Assembly: GCF_001428825.1 (NCBI RefSeq)
Contig: NZ_LMIT01000002.1
Span: 131,124 to 164,221, forward strand
Direction of reading: 5' to 3'
Length of the DNA: 33,098 nt
DNA from: Nocardioides sp. Root240
GTDB lineage: Bacteria > Actinomycetota > Actinomycetes > Propionibacteriales > Nocardioidaceae
The first letter of the stretch is position 1, and every line of letters starts with the position of its first letter. Under the pieces are notes generated by a model that did no database searches, had not been told where the DNA came from, and saw only the letters and a list, made by a program, of their open reading frames with translations. The position numbers and the translations under genes were made by a program. This document shows, piece by piece, positions 7,958 through 22,267 of this stretch.

Positions 7958-8659
7958 TCATCGCGCGGCCTTCCGGTAGAGCGCGGCCGGGCGTCCGCGC
8001 AGCTGCGTCGCCAGGACCGGCTCGCCGCCGCGCAGCACGGGCTCGAGCATCGGCTTCATGCGGCGGTTGAAGTTGTCCTTGTGGAGCTCGTCGCCGACGA
8101 CGGCCTCGTGCACCCTCCGCAGCTGGTGGAGGGTGAACGGCTCGGGGAGGAATCCGTCGGGATCGGGGTGGATGTCGACGTACCGGTAGCGGATCTCGTA
8201 GCGGTCCCGGAGCTCGTGGACGGCGGTCGCAACGATCTCGTCGTGGTCGAAGAGCAGCGGGTCCTCGCCGATCAGGTTCCCAGTGGTCGAGACGGGGACG
8301 AGGTCACCGGTGGCGGCGGCGAGGTCGGACTCGTGGAGAGAGACCGAGTGGCCGGCCGAGATCGCCCAGGTGCGGTCGTCGCGCTCGGGGTCGTCGAAGA
8401 GTCGGAGCAGGCGGGGGTGGATGTCGTCGCGCGGCTCGATGCCGACCTTGCGGCGGAGCACGTCCTCGACCGTCTGCGCGACGGTCCAGCGCTCGCGGAT
8501 GAAGCCGCCCGGTAACGCGCGCCCTTCTGGATCGGCCCGGTCCTGCACGAGCAGCTTCAGCTCGGGGTTTGTGTCGGAGGCCCCCTCTACCGTCAGCAGT
8601 GCGAGGTCGACGGTGACGCCCGGGCGGGGGTAGGACTCCAGTCCGCGAGGTCGAGCCAT
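7958..8659 (-). CDS. NrtR-type regulator: degenerate Nudix domain plus winged helix
   Basis: 233 residues. The N-terminal Nudix domain (about 10-140) leads into a C-terminal winged helix (about 150-233) with the NrtR wording FTLHQLRRVHEAVVGDELHKDNFNRR and the closing RGRPAALYR. NrtR proteins bind ADP-ribose or related nucleotides through the Nudix fold and release operator DNA. The Nudix box (51-74) keeps its glycines, but the catalytic positions read W58, D66, V67, R70 and K71 in place of E, R, E, E and E, so hydrolysis is very unlikely and this should be a pure sensor. ATG 8659 is preceded by TAATCT with six bases between, a leaderless start. It is divergent from the ADP-ribosylglycohydrolase operon and probably represses both through the shared palindrome. 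Confidence 0.85.
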   Translation of the reverse strand: MARPRGLESYPRPGVTVDLALLTVEGASDTNPELKLLVQDRADPEGRALPGGFIRERWTVAQTVEDVLRRKVGIEPRDDIHPRLLRLFDDPERDDRTWAISAGHSVSLHESDLAAATGDLVPVSTTGNLIGEDPLLFDHDEIVATAVHELRDRYEIRYRYVDIHPDPDGFLPEPFTLHQLRRVHEAVVGDELHKDNFNRRMKPMLEPVLRGGEPVLATQLRGRPAALYRKAAR

Positions 8660-8713
8660 TCCCGCAGATTAGCGCGACTGGCGTGCTAATGTATAGCGAC
8701 GATGACATGCTAA
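8660..8713. promoter_or_regulatory. Divergent promoter and candidate NrtR operator
   Basis: On the reverse strand TATACA (8695-8690), an 18-base gap and TAATCT (8671-8666) form the promoter of the NrtR-like gene. An imperfect palindrome at 8668-8690 has arms ATTAGC and GCTAAT around 11 bases, with an inner CG/CG pair, and fills that gap. Further half sites follow: TAGC (8694-8697), pairing with GCTA at 8685, and GCTAA (8709-8713). TAATGT (8687-8692) or TATAGC (8692-8697) could be the -10 of the rightward operon, so one bound dimer could block both directions. Confidence 0.6.
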
Positions 8714-8719
8714 AGGAGG
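8712..8719 (+). promoter_or_regulatory. Strong ribosome-binding site fixing the ATG at 8725
   Basis: AAAGGAGG, followed by five bases and ATG 8725, is the best Shine-Dalgarno sequence in the window. It rules out the in-frame GTG and ATG codons upstream and the GTG at 8722, which is too close. Confidence 0.8.
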
Positions 8720-8724
8720 CTGTG

Positions 8725-9678
8725 ATGACGAACCCCAGCCACGGCGGAACGCCCGCCGATGAGACCTGCTCCGAGGCCTGGTCCGCGTTCGAGGTCTTGC
8801 TCGGCGACCACCTCGCGACGATGCTCGACGTCGAGGACCACCTGATCGTCGAGATCCCCGACGGGGGTGCGTCCGGCACCGCGCCGTACGCACAGTTCGC
8901 GGGGTGTGGCGACGGCTCCACGGTCCATGGCGAGGTCACCAGCAACGCCTACCTCGGCGCGGCGTTCCTGCTCGACGAGGACGAGGAGCTCCTGCTCGAC
9001 GACGCGGGCTTCGTGCTGGCCGACGACGACGGTACTCCGGCCAACTGGTCCTCCGAGGAGGACGTCACCGTGGTCCGGGCGCTCGCCAGCCGGGTGGTCT
9101 TCGCGCTGCGCCAGGTCTTCGGGATTGCCCATCCGCACCTGATGACCTACCAGGCCTGGGGTCCGGCCGCCAGCGGCGCGCGGCGGCTCGGGCTGTGCCC
9201 GACGGCCGACGTACCGGTGGAGGGCGAGGGTGCCGACCAGGCTCCGCGCACCGGACTCCGCAAGACGGCCTACAAGCCGAAGACGCGCGCCAGGCTGCTC
9301 CGCCTCGTCGGGCGGGCCCTCGAGGAGCGGTACGGCGTCGCGTCGCCGCTGGACGACGACGAGGACTACCTGCTGCGCCACCTCGACCAGCCGGTCTGGG
9401 TGCGCGTGCGCCAGGACCAGCCCGCCGTCGAGATCCTCGCGCGGGTGACCCACGACGTCCGGTCCCTCCGTGGCACCGCGGTCGAGATCGGGATCCTCAA
9501 CCGCGACCACCTGTGGGTGAAGTGGGAGCTGCGCGACCGGGCCGTCTTCCAGACGCTCGTGGTTCCCGGCTTCCCGTTCGCCCCGCTCCACCTGGCCGCG
9601 ATGCTCGACGTGTTCGAGGCGGCGATGACCGCAACCCGAGACGACCTGGCCCTCCGGGTCGGTGGGAGGACTGCCTGA
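8725..9678 (+). CDS. Unknown two-domain protein, YbjN/CesT (TY-Chap)-like
   Basis: 317 residues, acidic, no signal peptide or membrane segment. Two alpha/beta units are separated by a linker at about 165-195. The first ends in VVRALASRVVFALRQVFGIAHPHLMTY. The second runs from RARLLRLVGRALEERYG through a strand-rich stretch (PVWVRVRQDQPAVEILARV, TAVEIGILNRDHLWVKW) to a final helix. This strand-helix layout resembles the YbjN / type III secretion chaperone (TY-Chap) superfamily seen in actinobacterial operons with ADP-ribose enzymes; I recognise the style rather than a diagnostic motif. The stop overlaps the next ATG (TGATG), so it is made together with the glycohydrolase-phosphatase and may chaperone or present a substrate to it. 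Function unproven. Confidence 0.62.
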   Translation: MTNPSHGGTPADETCSEAWSAFEVLLGDHLATMLDVEDHLIVEIPDGGASGTAPYAQFAGCGDGSTVHGEVTSNAYLGAAFLLDEDEELLLDDAGFVLADDDGTPANWSSEEDVTVVRALASRVVFALRQVFGIAHPHLMTYQAWGPAASGARRLGLCPTADVPVEGEGADQAPRTGLRKTAYKPKTRARLLRLVGRALEERYGVASPLDDDEDYLLRHLDQPVWVRVRQDQPAVEILARVTHDVRSLRGTAVEIGILNRDHLWVKWELRDRAVFQTLVVPGFPFAPLHLAAMLDVFEAAMTATRDDLALRVGGRTA

Positions 9679-11123
9679 TGAAGCTCACCCCTGCACAGCT
9701 CGACCGCGCCTGCGGTGCCCTGCTCGGCTCTGCCGCCGGCGACGCCCTCGGCGCCGGCTACGAGTTCGGGAGCGCCCGGCTCGGCCCCGACGGCCCGTCC
9801 ATGATCGGCGGTGGCCTCGGCGGATTCGCGCCGGGGGAGTGGACCGACGACACCACGATGGCGTGGTGCATCGCCGACGTCGCAGCGTCCGGCGTCGACC
9901 TCCGCTCCGAGGAGGGCCTGACCGCGATCGCGCGCCGGTTCCGCGACTGGTTCGAGACCGGTCCGGCCGACATCGGCATCCAGACCAGCAAGGTGCTGCG
10001 CTCCGCCGGCCAGGCGCCGACCGGGAGTGCGCTGCTCGCGACGTCCTACGACCTCCACGCGCGCACCGGCCACACCGCCGGCAACGGCTCCCTGATGCGC
10101 ACCGCGGCCGTCGCCCTGCCCCACCTCGACGACGCCGCCGCGGTCGCCGAGGCGGCCGCCGCCGTCAGCCGACTGACCCACTACGACCCGCGCGCCGGCG
10201 AGGCCTGCGTGCTGTGGTCGCTCGCGATCCGCCACGCGATCCTCCACGCCGAGCTCGACGTGCGCGTCGGCCTCGACCTGCTCGACGACGAGGCCGCGTC
10301 GTACTGGTCCGCACGGATAGACGAGGCCGAGACCCGCCGTCCCGGGCACTTCAACCCCAACGGATGGGTGGTCGCCGCCTTCCAGGCGGCGTGGTCCGCG
10401 ATCGCCCACACCCCCGTCATGCCCGGCGCCGACGCCTGCCGTCAGCTCACCGACGGCCTGGCGACCGCCATCGCGATCGGTGACGACACCGACACGGTCG
10501 CCGCCATCGCGGGCGCCCTGCTCGGCGCCCGCTGGGGCGCGTCCGCCGTCCCGGCCGCCTGGCGCCGGATCCTCCACGGCTACCCGGGCCTGCGCGGCGA
10601 GGACCTGGTCCGGCTCGCCCACCTCGCCGCCCACCGCGGGCCCGGCGTCCACGGCTGGCCCACCGCCACCCACATCGACTACTCCGGCTACGGCATCGCC
10701 GGCACCCTCGTCCCGCACCCCTACGACGACGGCGTGCTCCTCGGCGACGCGGGCGCCCTCGACGACCTCCCCGCCGACATCACCGCCGTCGTCAGTCTCT
10801 GCCTCGTCGGCACCGGCCAGGTCCGCGCGGGCGTCGAGCACGTCTTCTACCGCCTGATCGACGTCCCCGACCCCGAGGTCAACCCGAACCTCGACTTCCT
10901 CCTCGCCGACGCCGCCGCCACCGTCGCCGCGCTGCGCGACGAGGGGCACCGCGTCCTGGTGCACTGTGTCGCCGCGCAGAGTCGTACGCCGACCGTCGGC
11001 ATCGCCTACGCGCTGCACCGCGGGGTGCCGCTCGACGAGGCGTTCGGTGCGGTGTGTGGGGTGCTGCCGTCGGCGTACCCGAACCGGGGGTTCCGGGCGG
11101 CACTGGAGCGGCTGTCGAGCTGA
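9678..11123 (+). CDS. ADP-ribosylglycohydrolase fused to a dual-specificity phosphatase domain
   Basis: 481 residues. Part one (1 to about 315) is a DraG-type ADP-ribosylglycohydrolase: GDALGAGYEF (21-30), WTDDTT (55-60), the NGSLMRTA segment and GDDTDT (268-273) supply the acidic residues that hold the two metal ions. Part two (about 330-481) is a cysteine phosphatase whose P-loop is HCVAAQSR (C430-x5-R436), followed by TPT as in dual-specificity phosphatases. The first domain would remove ADP-ribose from protein, nucleic acid or a small molecule; the second might dephosphorylate the same target or a phosphorylated ADP-ribose. ATG 9678 has GGGAGGA upstream and overlaps the previous stop. Both active sites look intact. 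Regulation by the neighbouring NrtR-like protein, which should sense ADP-ribose, would close a feedback loop. Confidence 0.88.
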   Translation: MKLTPAQLDRACGALLGSAAGDALGAGYEFGSARLGPDGPSMIGGGLGGFAPGEWTDDTTMAWCIADVAASGVDLRSEEGLTAIARRFRDWFETGPADIGIQTSKVLRSAGQAPTGSALLATSYDLHARTGHTAGNGSLMRTAAVALPHLDDAAAVAEAAAAVSRLTHYDPRAGEACVLWSLAIRHAILHAELDVRVGLDLLDDEAASYWSARIDEAETRRPGHFNPNGWVVAAFQAAWSAIAHTPVMPGADACRQLTDGLATAIAIGDDTDTVAAIAGALLGARWGASAVPAAWRRILHGYPGLRGEDLVRLAHLAAHRGPGVHGWPTATHIDYSGYGIAGTLVPHPYDDGVLLGDAGALDDLPADITAVVSLCLVGTGQVRAGVEHVFYRLIDVPDPEVNPNLDFLLADAAATVAALRDEGHRVLVHCVAAQSRTPTVGIAYALHRGVPLDEAFGAVCGVLPSAYPNRGFRAALERLSS

Positions 11124-11151
11124 AAGCGCCTCATGAGTCGGACGGGTCCTC

Positions 11152-11157
11152 TACGGT
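11152..11157 (+). promoter_or_regulatory. Weak candidate -10 for the DUF262 pair
   Basis: TACGGT fits TANNNT in the 90-base gap before the first DUF262 gene, but no convincing -35 is found. The gene has its own Shine-Dalgarno sequence AAGGAG (11202-11207), six bases before the ATG at 11214. Confidence 0.3.
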
Positions 11158-11213
11158 CGCCCAGAGGCCGCACGGAGTCGCTCGTCGGGCCTGCCGGGTT
11201 GAAGGAGACACAG

Positions 11214-13013
11214 ATGACGGACGACGCAGGGGCCTTCGAGGGACGGGAGGTCGGCAAGATCTCGGGGAGCTTCTTCGTGCCTCGTTATCAGCGCGGCTAC
11301 CGGTGGACCGGGCTCGAGGTGGCGCGTCTCCTCCAGGACATCAACGACAGCGGCACGGTCACCTATTACCTGCAGCCCATCGTCGTGAAGGCGATGGTTG
11401 ACGGTCGTTGGGAGCTGATCGACGGACAGCAACGGTTGACGACCCTCGCCCTGATCGTTCGGTATTTCAAGAAGTACGTCCCGATGGCCGACGTGAAGTA
11501 CACGATCGAGTACGAGACCAGGCCGCAGAGTGAGAAGTTTCTGCTGGAACCGGACGAAGCGACTGCAAACGAGAACATCGACTTCTTTCACATGTACGAG
11601 GCGTGGAAGGCCATCGGGGAATGGCTCGACGGTCAGGAAGACCCGTCGACCTCGGCATTCGAGATCTATTCGGCTCTGTCGCGGAGAGTCAAAGTGATCT
11701 GGTACGAGGCGCCGGCGGAGACCGAGGCTGTCAAGCTGTTCACCGACCTCAACACCGGCCGCATCCCGTTGACGGACGCGGAGTTGGTGAAGGCCCTCCT
11801 GCTGTCACGGAGCAGAGAGATGGATGGGACCGACCGCGCGCTGAGCGTTGCGGCAGAGTGGGACGCGATCGAGAGGGACCTGCGTGATCCTGAGCTGTGG
11901 GCATTCCTCACGGCGAGGTCGGATGAGGAGGCGACCCACATCAGCCTCCTCCTCGACACGATCGCCGACCAGATCTCCGACCGGATCCGGGCGAGCGACG
12001 GCCTGAAGCCACTTCGCGGCCGAGACCGCCCGAGTTTCCACACGTTCGAGACCCTCCGACGTGCCGTCGTCGAGGCGGGTGAGTTGAAGGGCGTGCTGTG
12101 CGATCACGAGGTGAAGGACGGCGAGGGCGCTGCGCACCTGTGGGACCACGTCGTCGATCTCCATTCGTTGGTCGCCGGGTGGTTCGAGGAGCGGGAGACC
12201 TTCCACAAGATCGGGTATCTGACTGCCTGCCGTCTTCCCTTCGAGATCGTGCTCGGTCTCGCCGAATCGGCGACCCGGAGTCAGTTCATCGACCGGCTCG
12301 ACACGATGATCGCTGCTGGCAGTGGCGTGGGCTTGCGCATGACCGCCCAAGACCTGCGCAGCCTTGCCTACGGTGAGGATGACGCACGGATCAAACGAGC
12401 TCTCTTGTTGATGAACGTGGAAGCCGTGCGAAAGATCACGGGGTCGACCGAGCGGTTCTCGTTCCACACCTACGCCGCGCGGACCTGGTCGCTGGAGCAC
12501 ATCCACGCACAGAACTCGGACGGTCTCAACACCGCGGAGCAGTGGACGACGTGGCTCCGACAGCATCGGGACGCGCTGTCGGGGATGCCCGACCTGACCC
12601 CTGGCGAGGTGGACGACCTCACGAACCGGATCGACGAGGCGTTGCAGGGGATCACGCTCGAGAAGTTCCAGGTGCTCGAGACCGAACTCCGCGCGATTTA
12701 CGCGCCGCCAGAGACAGCCGGAGTTCCCGAAGAGCACGCACTGAGCAACCTCGCTCTGCTGGAGCGCAACGACAACAGCGTGCTCAACAACGCGGTGTTC
12801 GAGGTGAAACGGCAACGCGTCCTCGAGCTCGATCGTGCCGGTTCCTACATCCCGGTCTGCACCCGCAACGTCTTCCTCAAGTACTACACGGATCGCCACG
12901 TGCAACAGCTTCACTTCTGGAGCCTCCAGGATCGGCTGGCCTACGTGGAGGCCGTCGAGCGAGAGCTCGCCCCCTATCTTCTGCCCTCGACCCAGACGGA
13001 GCTCGCGTCGTGA
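11214..13013 (+). CDS. DUF262 + DUF1524 protein, GmrSD-like restriction enzyme
   Basis: 599 residues. The N-terminal DUF262 (ParB/sulfiredoxin-like NTPase) shows VPRYQRGYRW (22-31), DGQQRLTTLAL (70-80) and later FTDLNTGRIPLTDAELVKA. The C-terminal part is DUF1524, an HNH-type nuclease: LEHIHAQN (427-434) and LALLERNDNSVLNNAVFEVKR from about 513. GmrSD, SspE and other DUF262 proteins use nucleotide hydrolysis to sense modified DNA and an HNH domain to cut it, so a type IV restriction role is likely. ATG 11214 is chosen for the AAGGAG six bases upstream. The stop overlaps the GTG of the second DUF262 gene. G+C is visibly lower than in neighbours (31 of 60 bases in 11461-11520 against 46 of 60 in 20461-20520, both counted), suggesting transfer. 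Confidence 0.87.
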   Translation: MTDDAGAFEGREVGKISGSFFVPRYQRGYRWTGLEVARLLQDINDSGTVTYYLQPIVVKAMVDGRWELIDGQQRLTTLALIVRYFKKYVPMADVKYTIEYETRPQSEKFLLEPDEATANENIDFFHMYEAWKAIGEWLDGQEDPSTSAFEIYSALSRRVKVIWYEAPAETEAVKLFTDLNTGRIPLTDAELVKALLLSRSREMDGTDRALSVAAEWDAIERDLRDPELWAFLTARSDEEATHISLLLDTIADQISDRIRASDGLKPLRGRDRPSFHTFETLRRAVVEAGELKGVLCDHEVKDGEGAAHLWDHVVDLHSLVAGWFEERETFHKIGYLTACRLPFEIVLGLAESATRSQFIDRLDTMIAAGSGVGLRMTAQDLRSLAYGEDDARIKRALLLMNVEAVRKITGSTERFSFHTYAARTWSLEHIHAQNSDGLNTAEQWTTWLRQHRDALSGMPDLTPGEVDDLTNRIDEALQGITLEKFQVLETELRAIYAPPETAGVPEEHALSNLALLERNDNSVLNNAVFEVKRQRVLELDRAGSYIPVCTRNVFLKYYTDRHVQQLHFWSLQDRLAYVEAVERELAPYLLPSTQTELAS

Positions 13014-15346
13014 GCCGTATCGAGTCCTTCACCCGGATGTTCGAGCCGGACACGGCGCACGGTGCGGTGATCACGCGCGTCGAGATTCCGCTGATCCAGC
13101 GCGACTACGCCCAGGGACGGCGGGGGGAGAAGATCGACGACATCCGCGCCCGTTTCCTCGAGTACTTGCGTGAGGCGCTCGCTGGAAGCGCGCCGAAGCC
13201 CGCAAGTCTTGACTTCGTCTACGGGGAGCTCAAGGCGGACGGCACGCTCCAACCGCTCGACGGACAGCAACGACTCACCACGCTCTTCCTCCTGCACTGG
13301 TACCTCGCGGCGCGCACCGGCCAACTCGGTGACGACCTCGGATGGACACGGTTCACCTACGAGACCCGTCCGAGCGCACGCCGTTTCTGCCAGCGGCTGG
13401 TCGCGTCCACGCCACCCCTTGGTGCAAGTCGGTTGTCCGAGTGGGTCCAGGACCAGCCGTGGTACCTGTTCGTGTGGCGCTACGACCCGACCATCAACTC
13501 GATGCTGGTCATGCTCGACGCGATCGACGAGACATTTGCGGACGTTGATGCAGGTCTCGCCTGGCAGCGCCTCACGGACCCGGACGAGCCCGCGATCTCC
13601 TTCCACCTCCTCCCGCTGCCCGACATGGGCTCGGCTGAGGACCTCTACGTGAAGATGAACTCGCGCGGGAAGCCGCTGACAGATTTCGAGAACTTCAAGG
13701 CCCGGTTCGAGAAGGTCATCGAGTGGTCGGACAAGAGTGCCGAGTTCGCGCTGCGGGCGGACACAGTGTGGTCCGACGTCCTGTGGGCGTACCGCGGGGA
13801 CGACGACCTCGTCGACGACGAGTTCCTGCGCTACTTCGACTTCGTGACCGAGGTGTGCGAATGGCGAGGCGACCTGACTCCCGGTGGTGCAGGCGAGATG
13901 ACCCGGCTCCAGCGGGCGACGAACGTCTATGGTGCCAACAACCCGTCGGCTGCTGACAACCTGAGCTTCCTGTTCGCCGCCTTCGACGTCTGGCAGGGCC
14001 GGGACGTCGACGAGACGTTCGCAAAGCTCTTCGCAGAACCTGCTGCGGCAGCCGGTGCCGGCGGGCTTCCCCTGTTCTTCAGGGATCCCGAGATCAACTT
14101 GTTCCATGCGGCGTGCCGTAGGTACGGCGATACCGCAGGTGGCGGCAATCGCCTGTTCACCTTCGGCCAGACCCTGCTCCTCTACGCCGTCGTACTGAGC
14201 CTTGCCGACGCGCCGGACGACCACGAGCACGAGTTTCCGGGGCGCCTTCGCACACTGCGCAACTTGGTCGAGGGCTCGCAGTACGAGATGCGCGCCGAGC
14301 GGATGCCGAGGCTGCTCGCGGATTCTCGTGCTCTGGTCCTGCACGGAGAACTCCCCGAGGCTGGCAACACCTTCGCCGTCGCTCAGATCGAGGATGAGCA
14401 GGACAAACGGGCCTTCCTTGAGACGCATCCCGCACTTGCCACGGAGATCCATCGTCTGGAGGACCATGCTCTCCTCAAGGGTTCCACGACGGCGTTCGAG
14501 CTGGATGCTGAGGCACTTCCTGCTCGCGTGGCCGTCTTCGAGCAGCTGATGGGTGACCCGAGTCTCTGGTGGGACCTGACGGGCGCGCTCCTCACCTTCG
14601 GCGACTACCAATGGCCGCGTCAGCGCAACGGAACGCTCGACGACTCGGAGTCGTTCCAGTTCGGCACCTGGGACGCGAAGTACAGCGATACGTGGCGGGA
14701 GGTGCTCGTTGGCCGCTCGCGGCCGCAGGCGAGCGGCACGTGCGCCGTGCTCGCCGACCTGCTCGACGCTGTCGCCTCATCGGACACTCCGCTCCCGGTC
14801 ACGCTCGAGCAGTTGCAGGCCACGTGGCTCCAAGCCCGCGAGGAGTCCAGCAGCTTCGACTGGCGGTACTACGTCGTCAAGTACCGGCACATGCGCGAGG
14901 GAGCATCAGGCTTGTACTACGCCCACGGACGCACCATGGGCTTCAGCCTGACAAACCTCCCGGGAGGCAAGAAGTATCGCAATGCCTACTTCCACGACCC
15001 CTACCTGTTGACGATCTACCACGAACTTGGTGCTCCCGACACCGTCGTCCGACCGTCGTTCAGCGGCTACGAATGGGATCCTCGGTGGATGCTCCTCTCT
15101 GCGAGCAGGACCGGTGTTCGCTGCGTCCCCGCGGGGTTCGAGTTGCTCGCGCCGCCGGCCGGCGGCCAGAACCATGTGTTCGCACCCGCGGCGTTCGACC
15201 TGGGCGCGGTGGCGATCGGCGAGGATGAATCGCGTGTCCTGGTCACGGTGCCGAAGGCGTCGAGTGAGGTGACCGGGCCGGATGCAGAAGATCGGATCCA
15301 GCATGGCTCCGACATCATTCGCGCGCTCATCGACGCTGGGCTGTGA
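13010..15346 (+). CDS. Large DUF262 protein, partner of the preceding gene
   Basis: 778 residues from GTG 13010, with GGAG upstream and a four-base overlap (GTGA) with the first DUF262 gene. The N-terminal domain has IPLIQRDYAQGRRG, LDGQQRLTTLFLLHWYLA (around D84) and VKMNSRGKPLTDFENFKARFE, all standard DUF262 motifs. The long remainder is helical and contains FDWRYYVVKYRHM and YYAHGRTMGFSL near the C-terminus, a segment I associate with the large DUF262 subfamily. No HNH motif comparable to that of the first gene is visible, so this may be the sensor or regulatory subunit while the first protein cuts. It is clearly co-translated with its partner. Which modification or invader it recognises is unknown. 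Confidence 0.83.
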   Translation: MSRIESFTRMFEPDTAHGAVITRVEIPLIQRDYAQGRRGEKIDDIRARFLEYLREALAGSAPKPASLDFVYGELKADGTLQPLDGQQRLTTLFLLHWYLAARTGQLGDDLGWTRFTYETRPSARRFCQRLVASTPPLGASRLSEWVQDQPWYLFVWRYDPTINSMLVMLDAIDETFADVDAGLAWQRLTDPDEPAISFHLLPLPDMGSAEDLYVKMNSRGKPLTDFENFKARFEKVIEWSDKSAEFALRADTVWSDVLWAYRGDDDLVDDEFLRYFDFVTEVCEWRGDLTPGGAGEMTRLQRATNVYGANNPSAADNLSFLFAAFDVWQGRDVDETFAKLFAEPAAAAGAGGLPLFFRDPEINLFHAACRRYGDTAGGGNRLFTFGQTLLLYAVVLSLADAPDDHEHEFPGRLRTLRNLVEGSQYEMRAERMPRLLADSRALVLHGELPEAGNTFAVAQIEDEQDKRAFLETHPALATEIHRLEDHALLKGSTTAFELDAEALPARVAVFEQLMGDPSLWWDLTGALLTFGDYQWPRQRNGTLDDSESFQFGTWDAKYSDTWREVLVGRSRPQASGTCAVLADLLDAVASSDTPLPVTLEQLQATWLQAREESSSFDWRYYVVKYRHMREGASGLYYAHGRTMGFSLTNLPGGKKYRNAYFHDPYLLTIYHELGAPDTVVRPSFSGYEWDPRWMLLSASRTGVRCVPAGFELLAPPAGGQNHVFAPAAFDLGAVAIGEDESRVLVTVPKASSEVTGPDAEDRIQHGSDIIRALIDAGL

Positions 15347-15376: not shown

Positions 15377-15404
15377 GGGGTGCGCGCGGGTTCCGTCCCA
15401 CCCC
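15377..15404. repeat. Hairpin between the DUF262 pair and the Wadjet operon
   Basis: GGGGTG (15377-15382) and CACCCC (15399-15404) can pair around a 16-base loop. The 123-base gap (15347-15469) holds no gene, no clear promoter and no U-tract. The hairpin may weaken read-through; it is a modest candidate. Confidence 0.3.
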
Positions 15405-15469
15405 TCTGGAATGCTGGCCCTTCCCCTTGCACACCAGACGACCGCCGACCCGAAGGGTGGGGAGCAGCA

Positions 15470-16975
15470 GTGAGCGACATCGCCGGCGAGCTGGCGCGCG
15501 TCAAGGGCGCCTTCGCGCAGCCGACCCTCACCCTGCTTCACCAGCGCCAGGCGCCCGTCGTCATCACGATCTTCCGGGCCGCCTTCGGGCGCAACAACAA
15601 GCCGATCCCGACGGCGCGGTTGCACACCCAGGTCGAGGAGCACCTCGCCGAGATCCGGCTCGTGGGGGAGGGGGAGGTGCCGAACGGCACCGGCAAGGAG
15701 ATCTGCCAGCGCTGGATGCGGGGGCAGTGGCTGGTCCGCTCGCTCGACGAGCAGGGCAACGAGGTCTACTCGCTGACCTCGCACGCGCAGCAGGCGCTGG
15801 AGCTGGTCAAGAACCTCGCGCGTGACCGGGCGACGCTCAGCGAGCACCGGATCGCCACCATCCTCGGCACCGTACGACGCTTCAACTCCGAGGCGAACCC
15901 CGACCGTGGGGCACGGGTGACCCTGCTCAACGAGGAGATCGCGCGGCTGAAGGAGGAGCGCGACCGGCTCGTCGACGGCGCCGAGATGGTGAGCGCCACC
16001 GAGGACTACATGGTCGAGGGGTTCACCGAGCTGCTGTCGCTGATCAGCGCGCTGCCGAGCGACTTCGCGCGGGTGGAGGAGCGGTTCGCGACCATCCGGG
16101 CCGAGATCCTGGGGGCCTTCCGCGCTGAGGACCGGCCGGCGGGCGAGGTGATCGACGAGTACCTCGCGCGGGCTGACGCGCTGATGACCGCGACCCACGA
16201 GGGCCGGGCGTTCGAGGGGGCGTTCACGCTGTTGCGCGACGACGCGCTCGTGACCCAGCTGCGCGAGGACCTGACCGCGCTGCTCGAGCACCCCCTGTCC
16301 GACGGCATCCTCGGTGACGCCGACCGGGCCGAGCTGCGGGGGACCGTGCGCCTGGTCCGCGACGGCCTCGACCGGGTGCTGGCGCAGCGCAGCCGGGTGA
16401 CGGCGACGCTCAAGGAGTACATCGTCTCCCACGACGCGGCGCGCGACCGTGAGCTGGAGCAGACCCTGCGCCAGGTCGAGTCCGAGCTGATGACCTGGAT
16501 GGCCGAGACCGGACCGCGCGCCACCCATGACGTCAGCCTGCTGCCGAGCCGGGTCGGCATCGACCACCTGCGCGAGCGCTTCTACGACCCGGCCGACGAC
16601 GTGCTGCCCGACCGGATCAGCGCGGCCGATCCCGCCGACGCGCCGGGCCTCTCGCTGGCGGAGCTGATGGCGCAGGGCGGGCCCCAGCTGGGCTCGCTGC
16701 GCGAGCGGCTCGACGACGCCCTGCGCGACCTGCTGCCGGCGGGCTCGCTGGGCGAGCTGTTCGAGTCGCTCGAGCCGGCGTTGCGCCGCCCGGTGGAGAT
16801 CTTCGGCCTGCTGCACCTCGCCGCCAACCGCGACCTGCGCACCGAGGCCGACGCGCTGGAGGCCTTCGCCGCCGTACGTCCGGACGGGTCGCAGCGGACC
16901 TTCGCGGTGCCGCGCACCCCGCTGCCGGACCCCGACCTTGACCGTGTCCCTGCTCCGGAGGAGTCCAACGCATGA
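15470..16975 (+). CDS. jetA: Wadjet protein JetA (DUF3375, kleisin-like subunit)
   Basis: 501 residues from GTG 15470, with GGGGAG five bases upstream. The sequence has the DUF3375 outline: an N-terminal winged-helix region (LARVKGAFAQPTLTLLHQRQAPVVITIFRAAF), EEHLAEIRL, the RWMRGQWLVRS segment, then helical coiled-coil sequence (LNEEIARLKEERDRLVDGAEM, about 145-165) and the HDVSLLPSRVGIDHLRERFYDP stretch. In type I Wadjet, JetA bridges the JetC ATPase heads like the kleisin of MukBEF, and the complex extrudes and cleaves small circular plasmids. It starts a four-gene operon in which every junction overlaps by four bases (here ATGA with jetB). Length is as usual for the family. Confidence 0.93.
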   Translation: MSDIAGELARVKGAFAQPTLTLLHQRQAPVVITIFRAAFGRNNKPIPTARLHTQVEEHLAEIRLVGEGEVPNGTGKEICQRWMRGQWLVRSLDEQGNEVYSLTSHAQQALELVKNLARDRATLSEHRIATILGTVRRFNSEANPDRGARVTLLNEEIARLKEERDRLVDGAEMVSATEDYMVEGFTELLSLISALPSDFARVEERFATIRAEILGAFRAEDRPAGEVIDEYLARADALMTATHEGRAFEGAFTLLRDDALVTQLREDLTALLEHPLSDGILGDADRAELRGTVRLVRDGLDRVLAQRSRVTATLKEYIVSHDAARDRELEQTLRQVESELMTWMAETGPRATHDVSLLPSRVGIDHLRERFYDPADDVLPDRISAADPADAPGLSLAELMAQGGPQLGSLRERLDDALRDLLPAGSLGELFESLEPALRRPVEIFGLLHLAANRDLRTEADALEAFAAVRPDGSQRTFAVPRTPLPDPDLDRVPAPEESNA

Positions 16976-17673
16976 GTGTCGACACCGACGAGGTGGAGTA
17001 CGACGAGGTCATCGACGAGACGTCGGTGTCCCTGTTCGAGGGCGACGAGGGCGGCCTCGACTACGTCCAGCGCCAGGCGCTCGTCGCGCTGCTCAAGCAG
17101 CGGTTCATCAGCGCCCGCACGCACCCCCGCGACTACGACACGCTCCGGGAGCACGAGCAGCTGCTCCGATCGCGCCTCAACGACCTCTTCCTCGACCTGC
17201 AGATCGACCGTGACCGCGAGGTCGCGTGGAAGCGCCAGGCCTCGCCCGAGGGCGGCGGCCGCTTCCCGACCCTGCTCCACGACACGTCGTGGACGCGCGA
17301 GGAGACCCTCGTGCTGGTCCACCTGCGCGACCGGTTGCGCGCCGGCCAGGCCGGCGGCGACCTGCGGGTCTACGTCGACCGCGACGACATCATCGACTAC
17401 GTCGCCAGCTACCGCCCCACCCACGCGACCGACGAGTCCGGCGACGAGAAGCGTGCCCGCAACGCCGTCCTCAGCGTGGCCAAGGCCGGCCTGCTGATCG
17501 GCACCGCCTCCGAGGACCGCTTCGAGATCAGCGAGGCCGTCGAGCCACTGCTGCCGCTCGAGCTGCTGCAGGAGCTGCTCGAGGCGCTGCAGAAGGCCAA
17601 CGGCACCGAGTCGGCAGAGGCGGCCCCCGAGGACGCCGACGCCGACCTGTTCGACGAGGAGAACGACGAGTGA
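16972..17673 (+). CDS. jetB: Wadjet protein JetB (DUF4194, KITE-like subunit)
   Basis: 233 residues. Acidic termini (EVEYDEVIDE; DADADLFDEENDE) flank the DUF4194 core, with LLKQRFISARTHPRDYDTLREHEQLLRSRLNDLFLDLQIDRDREVAWKRQ as its most typical segment, followed by a winged-helix region (DDIIDYVASYRPTHATDESGDEKRARNAVLSVAKAGLL). JetB corresponds to MukE/KITE subunits and docks on the JetA kleisin. ATG overlaps the jetA stop (ATGA) and its stop overlaps the jetC GTG, so subunits are made in a coupled fashion. Family and position agree; there is no sign of damage. Confidence 0.93.
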   Translation: MSVDTDEVEYDEVIDETSVSLFEGDEGGLDYVQRQALVALLKQRFISARTHPRDYDTLREHEQLLRSRLNDLFLDLQIDRDREVAWKRQASPEGGGRFPTLLHDTSWTREETLVLVHLRDRLRAGQAGGDLRVYVDRDDIIDYVASYRPTHATDESGDEKRARNAVLSVAKAGLLIGTASEDRFEISEAVEPLLPLELLQELLEALQKANGTESAEAAPEDADADLFDEENDE

Positions 17674-20600
17674 GTGTCGACGAGGCCGTGTCCGGCCTGT
17701 TCGCCGAGGAGGTCGTCGCCGTCCCTGCCGACGACACCGTCCAGTGGCGTGCCTCCCTGCTGCAGCTGGTCAACTGGGGCGGCTTCGGCGGCCTCACGAC
17801 CGTGCCGCTGGCGGGTGAGGCGACGATGATCTCCGGCGCCTCCGGCGTCGGCAAGAGCACCATCCTCGACGCCTACACCGCGCTGATGATGCCCTCGGAC
17901 ACCAAGTTCAACGGTGCGTCCAACGACGCCGTCGCCGGCCGGGCGCGCAGCGTCGGGCAGCGCAATCTGCTGTCGTACCTGCGGGGCGCCGTCGACGTGA
18001 TCGACGACCCGAAGACGGGCCGTCCGGTCGAGAAGCTGCTGCGCGGCAAGGGCGCCGACACGTGGGGCGCGGTTGCGATGACCTTCGTCAGCGACCAGGG
18101 CGGCCGGTTCACGGCGCTGCGCACCTACTACGTCCCGCGCCGCGCCGCGCGCTCCAGCGACGTCCACATGCAGATGTGGACCCACGAGGGCACCCTCCCG
18201 CTCGACAAGCTCGAGGCCGCCGTCCCCGAGAAGTTCCACGCCAACACGCTCAAGAAGCTCTTTCCCGGCATCCGCGTCCACCGCACGTACGCCGAGTTCT
18301 CCGCCGTCCTGCACGCCCGGCTCGGCATCGGCGCCAACGGTGACGGCGGCAAGGCGCTGCGCCTGCTGGCGCGGATCCAGGCCGGCAACCAGGTGCGCAG
18401 CGTCGACGAGCTCTACAAGGACATGGTGCTCGAGCGGCCGGCGACCTATGCCGCCGCCGACCGTGCGATCGAGCACTTCGACGACCTCGACGCAGCCCAC
18501 GCGGCGATGCGCACCGAGCAGCAGAAGCTCGAGCTGCTCGAGCCGATCACCGACATGTACGAGCGTCGTACGGCGGCCGCGAGGCGTCTCGACGAGCTGG
18601 ACTCCTACGGCATCACGCAGGCCGGCGACCAGACGCCGCTGAGGTACTGGCTCCTGCGCACGCACCTGCGCCTGATCGAGTCCGCGGTGGCCGCGAACCG
18701 TGACGCGCGTGCAGCCACCGTGCAGGCACTCGCGTCCGCGCAGGCGGCCGAGTTGCAGCTGGCGGGCGACCTCGACGCCGCCAAGGAGGCGCACCGTGAC
18801 GCGGGCGGCGGCGACCTGCAGCGGTTGGCCGCGCTCGCCGACGCGGAGCGCAACCTGCGGGTCGAGCGCGGCAACCGGCTCGCCGAGCTCGAGGACCGGG
18901 TCTACCCGCTGATCGGCCTGCCCGACATCGACCCGCCCGACCTCGAGGCCGCCGTGGAGGACGCCGGCGCCTTCACGGTGCTCCAGGAGCAGGCCCGCGA
19001 GCGAGTCGTCGCGGGCGAGAAGGAGCAGAAGCGTCTCCAGGCCGAGCGGGAGACCGTGCTGCGCGAGCAGCAGTTCCCGCTCACGCAGGAGCAGTCGGTG
19101 CTCAAGCAGGAGCGGGCCTCGCTGGAGAGCCGCGCGGGCCGCGTGCCGTCGTACCTCCACGACCTGCGCACCGCCGTCGCCCGCGCGAGCGGGCTGTCGG
19201 TCGACGAGCTGCCGTTCGTCGCCGAGCTGATCGACGTCGCGCCCGAGGAGGCGCGCTGGCGCACCGCGGTCGAGACGGTGCTGGGCGGCAGCGCCCGGAT
19301 GATGCTGGTGCCGCTCGACCGGCTGCAGGACTTCTCGTCCGCGATCGACGAGCTGCGCCTGCCGGCCCGGCTGACCTTCCAGGGCGTCGAGCTCGACCTG
19401 CCCGAGACCGGGCCGTCCGACCCCGAGCGGATCGCCGGCAAGCTGCTGTTCAAGGACTCGCCGTTCGCGGGCTGGGTGCAGCAGCACGTCGAGGACCCCT
19501 CCCGCAACGCGCTCTGCGTCGCCAACGCCGCCGACCTCGACGGTCCCGGCTTCCGCGTCACCCTCGCGGGCCAGACGCGCAACGGGCGCCGCGGCGCGCA
19601 CGGTCGCAACGACGTCCGCAACATCATCGGCTTCTCCAGCGAGGACGCGATCGCCGAGATCGACGCGCAGCTTGTCGAGGTCGAGAGCCGACTGGCCGAG
19701 ATCGACGGCCGCCTGGCCGAGCTGGGCCGCCGTTCCAGCCTGATCGACCTCCAGCGCAAGGCCTACGACGCCATCGTGATGGTGCGCTTCGACGACGTCG
19801 ACGTCGCGGGCAGCGACCGGCGGATCGCCGACCTGGAGGAGCGGCGGGCGGCGATCCTGGCCTCCGACGACCGGCTCCAGGTGCTGCAGGCGCAGATCGA
19901 CCAGCTCGAGGCGGACCTGGGCCAGGCGCGCAAGGAGCGCTTCTCGCTCGACCAGCGCAAGGACCAGCTCCAGGACGACCAGCGCGAGCTCTACGACGCC
20001 GAGGACACCATCAAGGACCGGGTGTTCGCGATCGAGGACGCCGGCGTGGTCGTCCTCGACGAGGTGCAGGAGGCGGCCCTGGCGGCCGACTTCGCTGCGG
20101 CGGCCGCACCGGACGACCCCGAGGACCTCGACCGCTTCAACAACAACTCCCAGCGGCTCGGCGAGCGGCTGCGCACGGCGCTCGCGGACGCCGAGGCGGA
20201 GATCAAGCGGTGCGACGAGGACCTCGCGCACATCTTCCGCAGCTACAAGTTCACGTGGGAGTCGCCGAACCTCGGCGCGACCGTGGAGTCGTACGCCGAC
20301 TACGCCCGCATCCTCGACGACATCCGCGGCAAGGGCCTCGCCGACCGCCACGCCGAGTGGCGCCGCCGGCTCACCGAGTGGAGCGGCCAGGACCTGGTGC
20401 CCCTCCTCGGCGCGATGTCCTCCAGCGTCGAGGAGATCGAGGACCGGCTCGAGCCGATCAACGCGATCCTGCGGCGCCTGGAGTTCGGCGCCTCGGGCGA
20501 CCGCCTGCGCATCCGCCTGCGCCGCCTGGCGCCGGCCCACGTGCAGGCGTTCATGAAGGACCTGCGCGAGCTGTCGACCGGTACGACGAGCGAGCTGAAG

Positions 20601-21119
20601 GAGGAGGACCTCGAGCGGAGGTTCGCCGAGCTCAGCCGCTTCATGCGCCAGCTGCGCCGCTCGGAGCACAGCACCGACGGCCCGACCGAGCGCGACAAGC
20701 TCCTCGACGTCCGGCGTCACGTGGAGATCAGCGCCGAGCGCTACGACTTCCTCAGCGGCGAGGTCCGGGCGACGTACCGGACGCTGGGGGAGAAGTCCGG
20801 CGGCGAGAGCCAGGAGCTGGTGGCGTTCATTGTCGGCTCCGCGCTGCGCTTCCGGCTCGGCGACGAGATGCGCTCGCGGCCGCGGTTCGCCCCCGTCTTC
20901 CTCGACGAGGGCTTCGTGAAGGCGGACTCCGAGTTCGCCGGCCGCGCCGTGCAGGCGTGGCGGGGGCTCGGGTTCCAGCTGATCATCGGCGTCCCGCTCG
21001 ACAAGGTGACCGGTCTCGAGCCGCACATGGACGAGCTGCTGGCGATCACGAAGAACGCGCAGACGCACCAGGCGTGGATCACGCCGATCTCGGACGTCGT
21101 GGAGGCCGACCCGGAGTGA
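17670..21119 (+). CDS. jetC: Wadjet protein JetC (SMC/MukB-like ATPase)
   Basis: 1149 residues from GTG 17670. The Walker A is GASGVGKST (56-64), preceded by LLQLVNWGGFGG, the usual SMC-like start. Long coiled-coil arms follow (about 260-480 and 640-800, rich in Glu, Arg, Gln and Leu), interrupted by a hinge-like segment near 480-650 (LSVDELPFVAELIDVAPEEARWRTAVETVLGGSARMM). The ABC signature KSGGESQ (about 1042-1048) and Walker B FAPVFLDEGFVKAD (about 1074-1087) close the head. JetC dimers extrude DNA loops on plasmids, stalling on small circles so that JetD cuts. All ATPase motifs are intact. The GTG overlaps the jetB stop and the TGA overlaps the jetD GTG. Confidence 0.95.
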   Translation: MSVDEAVSGLFAEEVVAVPADDTVQWRASLLQLVNWGGFGGLTTVPLAGEATMISGASGVGKSTILDAYTALMMPSDTKFNGASNDAVAGRARSVGQRNLLSYLRGAVDVIDDPKTGRPVEKLLRGKGADTWGAVAMTFVSDQGGRFTALRTYYVPRRAARSSDVHMQMWTHEGTLPLDKLEAAVPEKFHANTLKKLFPGIRVHRTYAEFSAVLHARLGIGANGDGGKALRLLARIQAGNQVRSVDELYKDMVLERPATYAAADRAIEHFDDLDAAHAAMRTEQQKLELLEPITDMYERRTAAARRLDELDSYGITQAGDQTPLRYWLLRTHLRLIESAVAANRDARAATVQALASAQAAELQLAGDLDAAKEAHRDAGGGDLQRLAALADAERNLRVERGNRLAELEDRVYPLIGLPDIDPPDLEAAVEDAGAFTVLQEQARERVVAGEKEQKRLQAERETVLREQQFPLTQEQSVLKQERASLESRAGRVPSYLHDLRTAVARASGLSVDELPFVAELIDVAPEEARWRTAVETVLGGSARMMLVPLDRLQDFSSAIDELRLPARLTFQGVELDLPETGPSDPERIAGKLLFKDSPFAGWVQQHVEDPSRNALCVANAADLDGPGFRVTLAGQTRNGRRGAHGRNDVRNIIGFSSEDAIAEIDAQLVEVESRLAEIDGRLAELGRRSSLIDLQRKAYDAIVMVRFDDVDVAGSDRRIADLEERRAAILASDDRLQVLQAQIDQLEADLGQARKERFSLDQRKDQLQDDQRELYDAEDTIKDRVFAIEDAGVVVLDEVQEAALAADFAAAAAPDDPEDLDRFNNNSQRLGERLRTALADAEAEIKRCDEDLAHIFRSYKFTWESPNLGATVESYADYARILDDIRGKGLADRHAEWRRRLTEWSGQDLVPLLGAMSSSVEEIEDRLEPINAILRRLEFGASGDRLRIRLRRLAPAHVQAFMKDLRELSTGTTSELKEEDLERRFAELSRFMRQLRRSEHSTDGPTERDKLLDVRRHVEISAERYDFLSGEVRATYRTLGEKSGGESQELVAFIVGSALRFRLGDEMRSRPRFAPVFLDEGFVKADSEFAGRAVQAWRGLGFQLIIGVPLDKVTGLEPHMDELLAITKNAQTHQAWITPISDVVEADPE

Positions 21120-22267
21120 AGTCGCCGGCCGACGCACTGGCCGACCTGGGGAGACGTCTGGAGAAGACGTGGAGCCAGGTTGTGACAGGCGCGGTCTGGG
21201 CACCGGAGATCGCTCTCGGCTCCTCCGGCCTGACCGGTCGGCGCCTCGCGGACGCGTGGGAGGACATTCACCCGCTCCGGTCGGAGTGGATGGGCTGGGC
21301 GGCGACCGCAGGCGAGGGCGTGGAGGTCGTCTGGCGCGATGCCACGTTGTACGGCAGCGGTCAACCGCTGCCGGCGACGCTCAGGGTCGCCGACGTCGAC
21401 ACGGCGGCCCGACTCCTGCAGGACGGGTGGCCGGACCGGCTCGACGAGGCCCGCACCCGTGCCGCGCGTCTGGCCGCGGACTTCCCCGGCCACGCCGATC
21501 CCGCGGGCATGCTGCGCGCCACCCGCGAGCTCCCGGCCGTCGACTTCGACCTGGTGGTCCGCGCCGCCCGCTGGTTCGCCGACCCGCATCCCGCCGGCCT
21601 GACCGCCCGGCAGGTGCCGGTCGAGGGCATGGGCACCAAGTGGCTCGACCGACGCGCCAGCGTCGTCCGTCGGCTCGCCGGCCTGGAGTCCCTGGACCTC
21701 GAGCCGGGCCGCCCCTCGCGCGTGCACCTCACCTACCTCGACCCGGACCATCTCGACTCCGGCGGCCGGCGCCACGACGTCGCCACCGTCGGTGACGTGC
21801 ACACGGTGGCCTACCGGCCGTCGGTGGTCCTGATCTCGGAGAATCGTGACACGGCGCAGCAGTTCCCGCGCGTCGCGGGCGGCATCGCGATCGAGGGAGA
21901 CGGCAACGGACCCGGCGCCGTGCCGCAGCTGCCGTGGGTGCGCGCCTGCCCGGACGTCGTCTACTGGGGCGACATGGACGTCAAGGGCCTGGAGATCCTC
22001 GCGGCCTTCCGTGGCACCGGCCTGCGGGCACGCTCGATGTTCATGGACCTGACGTCCTATCGGAGGTGGGAGCGCTTCGGCGTCGACCATGACCACGACG
22101 GCGCGCGGTTGGGGCCCCGGCCAGTGCGGGAGGTCGACCTCGAGCCGGGCGAGCGGGAGCTCTACGAGGCGCTCTGCTCTCCCGACTGGACCGGGCACCG
22201 CCGCATCGAGCAGGAGCGGATCCCACTTGCGGACGCTGCCGCCGTCCTACGGCTCGGCCGTGCGTAG
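21116..22267 (+). CDS. jetD: Wadjet protein JetD (DUF3322/DUF2220, Toprim nuclease)
   Basis: 383 residues from GTG 21116 (GTGA overlap with jetC). The N-terminal DUF3322 arm (ALADLGRRLEKTWSQVV..., KTWxxV) is followed by the DUF2220 Toprim domain. E242 in LISENRDTAQQFP and GDMD (285-288) in VVYWGDMDVKGLEILAAFRG are the expected metal-binding residues. JetD is related to topoisomerase VI A subunits and makes the plasmid double-strand break. Both acidic motifs are intact, so the system should be active. The stop codon lies within the palindrome that probably controls the following toxin-antitoxin pair. Confidence 0.94.
   Translation: MKSPADALADLGRRLEKTWSQVVTGAVWAPEIALGSSGLTGRRLADAWEDIHPLRSEWMGWAATAGEGVEVVWRDATLYGSGQPLPATLRVADVDTAARLLQDGWPDRLDEARTRAARLAADFPGHADPAGMLRATRELPAVDFDLVVRAARWFADPHPAGLTARQVPVEGMGTKWLDRRASVVRRLAGLESLDLEPGRPSRVHLTYLDPDHLDSGGRRHDVATVGDVHTVAYRPSVVLISENRDTAQQFPRVAGGIAIEGDGNGPGAVPQLPWVRACPDVVYWGDMDVKGLEILAAFRGTGLRARSMFMDLTSYRRWERFGVDHDHDGARLGPRPVREVDLEPGERELYEALCSPDWTGHRRIEQERIPLADAAAVLRLGRA

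What the first reader, a model, noticed from the sequence alone, without database searches (positions are those of the whole stretch)
7958..11123. Candidate ADP-ribose-responsive module: NrtR sensor, chaperone-like protein, glycohydrolase-phosphatase
A sensor-only NrtR is divergent from a two-gene coupled operon whose enzyme should release ADP-ribose, the known type of NrtR ligand. The shared palindrome sits on both promoters. The set suggests a circuit that detects ADP-ribosylation (stress, toxin or phage origin) and reverses it, with the YbjN/CesT-like protein as substrate adaptor. NrtR and glycohydrolase associations are known in NAD metabolism; this three-part form with a phosphatase fusion I cannot name.
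Basis: partly seen in the sequence, partly recalled or inferred. Interest (0 to 1): 0.75.

Follow-up and report, generated by a model that had tools for sequence, protein, structure and literature searches.

The report
NrtR-switched ADP-ribose removal module
A bacterial chromosome carries a regulator gene facing a two-gene operon whose enzyme is predicted to strip ADP-ribose tags from molecules, with two operator-like DNA repeats between them that recur in 14 of 14 close relatives; the set matches a defence system predicted in 2022, for which my searches found no test, and about a third of related loci carry a likely NAD-cleaving partner that the prediction did not expect.

Summary
7958-11123 holds an NrtR-like regulator gene divergent from a two-gene operon: a TY-Chap3/TY-Chap1 protein, then an ADP-ribosylglycohydrolase (ARG) fused to a dual-specificity phosphatase. 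It is not nameless: it matches the "ARG-centric" systems predicted by Iyer et al. 2022 (PMC9503650, section 3.8) to counter viral ADP-ribosylation; the listings I saw showed no experimental test.

New here: (1) two tandem 23-bp sites (8668-8690, 8692-8714), not one palindrome, in 14 of 14 close relatives, with the 8-N7-8 layout of the M. smegmatis NrtR site. (2) The Nudix catalytic box is lost in 28 of 28 nearer relatives and intact in 8 of 8 remoter ones. (3) 33 of 119 ARG rows in 245 genomes lie within 6 kb of an NrtR-type gene; about 0.33 expected. (4) 10 of 31 ARG-linked NrtR genes, against 0 of 131 others, have a SIR2 gene within 8 kb; the one modelled is a macrodomain-SIR2 fusion. For those loci this contradicts the "no coupled sirtuin" premise behind the viral-target argument. 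The window's genome lacks that fusion.

DNA binding, ligand, substrate and purpose remain inferred.

The parts
7958..8659 (-). NrtR-like regulator, 233 aa: degenerate Nudix domain plus NrtR winged helix
   Evidence: PF21906 49.1 bits; sequence similarity to 2fml, 3gz5; REUxEE box absent
8668..8690 (.). operator-like site 1, ATTAGCGC-N7-GTGCTAAT
   Evidence: present in 14 of 14 close relatives; 8-N7-8 layout as M. smegmatis NrtR site
8692..8714 (.). operator-like site 2, TATAGCGA-N7-ATGCTAAA, starts 24 bp after site 1
   Evidence: present in 14 of 14 close relatives
8712..8719 (+). likely ribosome-binding sequence AAAGGAGG for the operon, overlapping site 2
   Evidence: sequence
8725..9678 (+). 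TY-Chap3 + TY-Chap1 protein, 317 aa, predicted peptide-binding chaperone
9678..11123 (+). ADP-ribosylglycohydrolase fused to dual-specificity phosphatase, 481 aa
   Evidence: PF03747 171.4 bits, residues 13-293; DSPc residues 408-476; ARG motifs and HCVAAQSR (CX5R) present
11214..13013 (+). neighbour, not core: GmrSD_N-type protein (likely start ATG 11214)
   Evidence: PF03235 103.6 bits; lower GC
13010..15346 (+). neighbour, not core: second GmrSD_N-type protein
   Evidence: PF03235 62.7 bits
15380..22267 (+). neighbour, not core: Wadjet JetA, JetB, JetC, JetD
   Evidence: PF11855, PF13835, SbcC/AAA, JetD_C and PADLOC JetA-D models

Best explanation
This is a three-gene module of the predicted ARG-centric kind, in which an NrtR-like protein with a degenerate Nudix box likely sits as repressor on two tandem sites between the divergent genes and would let go when ADP-ribose or a close derivative rises. 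Inferred steps: release would turn on both the repressor gene and the operon; the ARG domain would cut ADP-ribose from modified macromolecules; the fused phosphatase would remove a phosphate left on product or target; the TY-Chap protein would bring modified or unfolded proteins to the enzyme. Because the sensor lacks the residues to hydrolyse its ligand, ADP-ribose released by the enzyme would reinforce induction until other enzymes clear it. Shown: gene identities, degenerate Nudix box, intact ARG and phosphatase motifs, two conserved sites, gene linkage, Wadjet next door. The likely use is protection from ADP-ribosylation or NAD breakdown during conflict with a phage, a toxin or the cell's own effector.
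For: Two tandem sites in 14 of 14 close relatives with the 8-N7-8 layout of the M. smegmatis NrtR palindrome, whose catalytically dead NrtR is an auto-repressor released from DNA by ADP-ribose (PMC6800001 passages). Strict site pattern: zero-mismatch hits in the genome only at these two places. Nudix box lost in 28 of 28 clade A and B relatives, while the P-x-R-D and DH motifs stay, as they do in Nudix-intact NrtR-type proteins. ARG and NrtR-type genes linked 33 times against about 0.33 expected. A separate NrtR-type gene in the same genome sits by a NAPRTase-isochorismatase gene, so NAD control has its own candidate regulator. Same component set and same mechanism proposed by Iyer et al. 2022.
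Against: No binding, ligand or activity data. ADP-ribose released the M. smegmatis protein at 50 mM, a very high level. No sigma-70-like promoter was found by the scan around the sites. The phosphatase is unexplained, since ADP-ribose has no phosphomonoester. In 10 of 31 linked loci a SIR2 gene is near, which offers an internal source of ADP-ribose and weakens the foreign-target reading. 16 of 35 loci show no TY-Chap match and 6 of 35 no phosphatase match within 8 kb (some stretches are short). 86 of 119 ARG rows have no listed NrtR-type gene near.
Confidence: 0.55

Rival explanations
1. The module is the control-and-reset half of an intrinsic NAD-cleaving defence. Its natural partner would be the macrodomain-SIR2 protein found beside related modules: that protein would make ADP-ribose or ADP-ribosylate targets, the NrtR-like protein would sense the product, and ARG-phosphatase would undo the damage. 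The window's copy would have lost, or never had, the partner.
For: SIR2_2 gene within 8 kb in 10 of 31 ARG-linked NrtR genes, 0 of 131 other NrtR-type genes, 0 of 86 ARG rows without NrtR. In L079 the SIR2 gene overlaps the NrtR gene by 4 bases on the same strand; in L080 and L081 it lies downstream of ARG-phosphatase on the same strand. Model: macrodomain then ThsA/DSR2-like SIR2. All 10 aligned SIR2 proteins keep TTN[YF]D and LK[LM]HGD.
Against: 21 of 31 linked loci have no SIR2_2 hit within 8 kb. 10 of 20 macro-SIR2 genes in the family are not by a module, and the window's genome has none. No site of the operator pattern lies by the SIR2 start in L065, L067, L068 or L069, and in six loci SIR2 is convergent with NrtR.
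Confidence: 0.2
2. A metabolic clean-up module: the regulator senses NAD breakdown products, and the operon recycles ADP-ribose adducts formed in ordinary metabolism, with no role in conflict.
For: NrtR-type regulators are known from NAD metabolism (PMC6800001). Close ARG relatives also occur alone, without NrtR, TY-Chap or phosphatase (10 of 11 for NrtR, 11 of 11 for the other two).
Against: Patchy: 23 of 245 genomes have a relative of this regulator. 69-72% ARG identity to Gordonia loci suggests transfer. Wadjet genes are by 4 of 35 modules and nucleases or SIR2 by others. The genome's other NrtR-type gene sits by the NAD salvage gene.
Confidence: 0.15
3. The ARG-phosphatase handles ADP-ribose-1''-phosphate made by NAD phosphorylase (RES) toxins or RNA repair; the phosphatase makes ADP-ribose, which induces the operon.
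For: It would explain why a phosphatase is fused to an ARG. NatT, a RES toxin, makes ADP-ribose-1''-phosphate, and whether NrtR tells it from ADP-ribose is posed as a question in PMC11535050 (passages).
Against: 45 RES rows in 38 of 245 genomes; by comparison of places none is near an ARG-NrtR locus, and the window's genome has none. No KptA in the genome.
Confidence: 0.07

Closest known systems
ARG-centric systems (Iyer, Burroughs, Anantharaman, Aravind 2022, PMC9503650 section 3.8)
   Same: ARG domain, Nudix-HTH regulator, phosphatase of the rhodanese-phosphatase superfamily fused to ARG, TY-Chap protein; proposed ADP-ribose induction
   Different: Operator not described in the text read; that text argues from absence of coupled transferases or sirtuins, whereas 10 of 31 related loci here have a SIR2 gene near; GmrSD is not named there
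NrtR of Mycobacterium smegmatis (PMC6800001)
   Same: Divergent auto-regulated layout, 23-bp 8-N7-8 site, degenerate Nudix box
   Different: Controls nadABC there; here ARG operon, two tandem sites and different arm sequence
DraG and Tri1 ADP-ribosyl hydrolases
   Same: Same Pfam superfamily; best solved-structure matches include ADP-ribosylglycohydrolases 2cwc, 6dre and DraG 2woc
   Different: Far below both NCBIfam equivalog cut-offs; extra phosphatase domain
Thoeris (ThsA SIR2-SLOG; ThsA TM-macro, PMC11204291)
   Same: Only for the neighbour in related loci: ThsA-like SIR2, and a macrodomain as in TM-macro ThsA, which binds ADP-ribose
   Different: Macrodomain and SIR2 in one polypeptide beside an NrtR-ARG module; no such gene in the window's genome

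Membership tests
ARG-centric system (Iyer et al. 2022) | ARG domain | tested here: met
   PF03747 171.4 bits, motifs intact
ARG-centric system (Iyer et al. 2022) | One-component Nudix (or WYL) HTH regulator | tested here: met
   NrtR winged helix; Nudix part by similarity to 3gz5 and 2fml, degenerate
ARG-centric system (Iyer et al. 2022) | Coupled phosphatase, usually rhodanese-phosphatase superfamily | tested here: met
   DSPc 32.4 bits, 1.1 under cut-off, CX5R present; L003 relative over cut-off
ARG-centric system (Iyer et al. 2022) | Predicted peptide-binding chaperone such as TY-Chap | tested here: met
   PF22552 and PF22551; fold match
ARG-centric system (Iyer et al. 2022) | No coupled ADP-ribosyltransferase or sirtuin | tested here: inconclusive
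   Genome: both SIR2_2 hits on other contigs, no DarT; other transferase families not searched, not all window ORFs scanned
ARG-centric system (Iyer et al. 2022) | Counters viral ADP-ribosylation | not testable with these tools
   Needs phage and enzyme assays
NrtR proper (NAD regulator) | Score over the NCBIfam NtrR equivalog cut-off | tested here: not met
   47.5 of 400 bits, NF050029; filed as NrtR-like only
NrtR proper (NAD regulator) | NAD metabolism genes next to it | tested here: not met
   Neighbours are TY-Chap, ARG and a Phytase-like gene; the genome's other NrtR-type gene is by NAPRTase
NrtR-type DNA site | 23-bp palindrome with 8-bp arms and 7-bp spacer upstream of the regulator | tested here: met
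   Two such sites by sequence; M. smegmatis layout; binding not tested
DraG or Tri1 equivalogs | Score over the equivalog cut-off | tested here: not met
   84.8 of 337.05 and 93.9 of 490 bits

The most novel reading that the evidence does not exclude
ARG-NrtR modules and macrodomain-SIR2 enzymes form one ADP-ribose-gated immune circuit: ADP-ribose both lifts the NrtR-like repressor off its two tandem sites and is read by the macrodomain that gates the SIR2 NAD-cleaving enzyme, while ARG-phosphatase is the reset. Modules without SIR2, like the window's, run the same switch with other or no effectors. The target would be the host's own effector as much as the phage's.
Probability: 0.18. Interest if true: 0.8.

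Novelty: new member of a known kind. Interest (0 to 1): 0.5.

Why it matters
A predicted defence system becomes directly testable: the two-site element is an exact target for gel-shift and a ready reporter for the unknown ligand, and with only two zero-mismatch sites in the genome there is one promoter region to watch. The SIR2 linkage challenges, for a third of related loci, the argument that these systems must act on foreign ADP-ribosylation, and gives a concrete gene pair to test for toxicity and rescue.

Tried and rejected
Single-palindrome reading: rejected, there are two sites. Genome-wide regulon: at up to 1 mismatch the pattern gives six further places, but its reversed control gives 20 hits, so they are not above noise. 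RES partner: no linkage. KptA and DarT in the genome: none. Operator pattern near SIR2 starts in L065, L067, L068, L069: none. Operator pattern in standalone ARG loci: none in the 8 of 11 examined. Sigma-70-like promoters: none found in 8500-8900 or 11000-11400. TY-Chap model: mean pLDDT 69.4 from five sequences; rows of the fold comparison cover only about residues 184-315. GmrSD pair as core: rejected; in 2 of 35 loci, upstream of NrtR in L002, lower GC (L002 gene). PADLOC: no model hits the three core genes at E <= 0.1.

Counting notes. The NrtR_WHD list is cut by the tool at 150 rows; 12 places were added by hand. ARG rows include split and tandem hits (119 rows, 94 genomes). G212 (L094, same locus as L018) counts among the 31 linked NrtR although two other genes lie between; it was left out of the 35 loci but is one of the 8 Nudix-intact rows. 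L089, a partial regulator match without ARG, is the 1 miss of 24 and not among the 35. L005 and L019 (ARG-phosphatase, no NrtR detected) were left out of the 35. L062 and L064 duplicate L001 and L002 and were counted once. In L093 the regulator falls below the stricter E-value, hence NrtR 34 of 35. SIR2 11 of 35 includes L003, whose hit 6 kb away was not read further. Several stretches (L006, L087, L093, L095) are short, so neighbour counts are lower bounds.
Full report
What is there. The window lies in an unnamed 5.13-Mb genome. Its closest whole-genome relative at this locus, G204, is called 'same genus' and its contig has the length of the Nocardioides sp. J54 contig of L001, so this is very likely a Nocardioides. 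At 7958-8659(-) is a 233-aa protein with an NrtR winged helix; at 8725-9678(+) a TY-Chap3/TY-Chap1 protein; at 9678-11123(+) an ADP-ribosylglycohydrolase (ARG) with a C-terminal dual-specificity phosphatase. The operon genes overlap by one base. The ARG motifs and the phosphatase CX5R motif are present. The phosphatase scores just under Pfam's cut-off (32.4 of 33.5); its L003 relative is above it (36.6).

Operator. Between the start codons lie two 23-bp sites of the same 8-N7-8 layout, 8668-8690 and 8692-8714. In 14 of 14 close relatives (Nocardioides, Gordonia, Dietzia and unnamed same-genus genomes) both are present, starting 24 bp apart in 11, 28 in two and 29 in one. Arms average 1.83 and 1.70 bits per base, spacers 0.73 and 0.60; no tandem pair arose in 4,200 shuffles, a single site in 52. 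The degenerate pattern has zero-mismatch hits only at these two places in the genome; six further places at one mismatch are no more than its reversed control gives, 20. M. smegmatis NrtR binds a 23-bp GTTTTCGA-N7-TCGAAAAC palindrome, showed no hydrolase activity, and was released from DNA by ADP-ribose, at 50 mM (PMC6800001, passages). So the layout is that of an NrtR site with other arm sequences. That the window's protein binds here is inferred.

Regulator. The Nudix box REUxEE is absent in 28 of 28 proteins of clades A and B (down to about 40% identity), intact in 8 of 8 remoter regulators near ARG genes (L092-L099) and in 5 of 6 other NrtR-type genes fetched. One of these is in the window's own genome, next to a gene with NAPRTase and isochorismatase domains. 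The P-x-R-D stretch after the box and a DH motif are shared by the groups; L091 lacks the first. The simplest reading is a ligand pocket kept after catalysis was lost.

Linkage. In 245 same-family genomes, 33 of 119 ARG rows lie within 6 kb of one of 162 listed NrtR-type hits (31 of the 162), where about 0.33 is expected for 4-Mb genomes. Of 24 relatives of this regulator at E <= 1e-20, 23 have an ARG in the stretch read. In 35 non-redundant NrtR-ARG loci, within 8 kb: phosphatase 29, TY-Chap 19, SIR2 11, ARPP 6, HD 5, JetA 4, REase-ARP 3, GmrSD 2. Eleven close ARG relatives (L008-L014, L016-L018, L020) show no TY-Chap and no phosphatase by tblastn, and ten of them no NrtR. Most ARG rows, 86 of 119, have no listed NrtR-type gene near.

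Known kind. Iyer et al. 2022 (PMC9503650; section 3.8 read in full) describe this set: ARG, Nudix or WYL regulator, rhodanese-phosphatase-superfamily phosphatase, TY-Chap1-3, ARPP, nucleases. They propose that ADP-ribose released from phage-modified molecules induces the operon. My ten library searches, seen as listings, showed no experimental test; that library lacks most subscription papers.

Setting. Downstream lie two GmrSD_N genes of lower GC (0.643) and Wadjet JetABCD. JetA matches also sit within 8 kb of the ARG in L001, L063 and L066. The GmrSD pair looks like a separate acquisition (inferred from GC and rarity).

Mechanism and limits. Most likely: repressed by default, induced by an ADP-ribose-type ligand, removing ADP-ribose from macromolecules with a chaperone's help. 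A non-hydrolysing sensor would make induction self-reinforcing (inferred). The phosphatase is the least explained part: ADP-ribose carries no phosphomonoester (general knowledge), so it points to a phosphorylated product or target. A RES-toxin link was tested and not found. DNA binding, ligand, substrate and purpose are untested.

Noticed in passing
window 15380-22267: JetA, JetB, JetC and JetD genes of a Wadjet system in a row; JetA matches also lie near the module in L001, L063 and L066.
   Followed up: partly
window 11214-15346: Two consecutive GmrSD_N-type genes at 64% GC in a 70-75% GC neighbourhood, between the module and Wadjet; only 2 of 35 related loci show GmrSD matches.
   Followed up: partly
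L065, L067, L068, L069, L070, L073, L075, L079, L080, L081: SIR2 genes beside the NrtR-ARG module; the modelled one is a macrodomain-SIR2 fusion. In L079 it overlaps the NrtR gene; in L080 and L081 it follows ARG-phosphatase.
   Followed up: partly
Streptomyces phage records such as MH825706.1 and ON456338.1: 11 Streptomyces phage records carry an ARG relative at 41-48% identity without the phosphatase part (24 phage records match in all).
   Followed up: no
L008 6001-6951: Nocardioides sp. Root682 has a standalone ARG 79% identical to the window's, closer than the ARG of its own full module in L002 (72%).
   Followed up: partly
L067 7761-8546: A 261-aa protein between TY-Chap and ARG without a Pfam match at E <= 0.01.
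   Followed up: no
L071, L074, L075, L076, L079 regulator upstream regions: The regulators of about 45% identity have another upstream motif (TTAG[CA]GCAGATCTGCGC-like in several), as if operator and regulator changed together.
   Followed up: no
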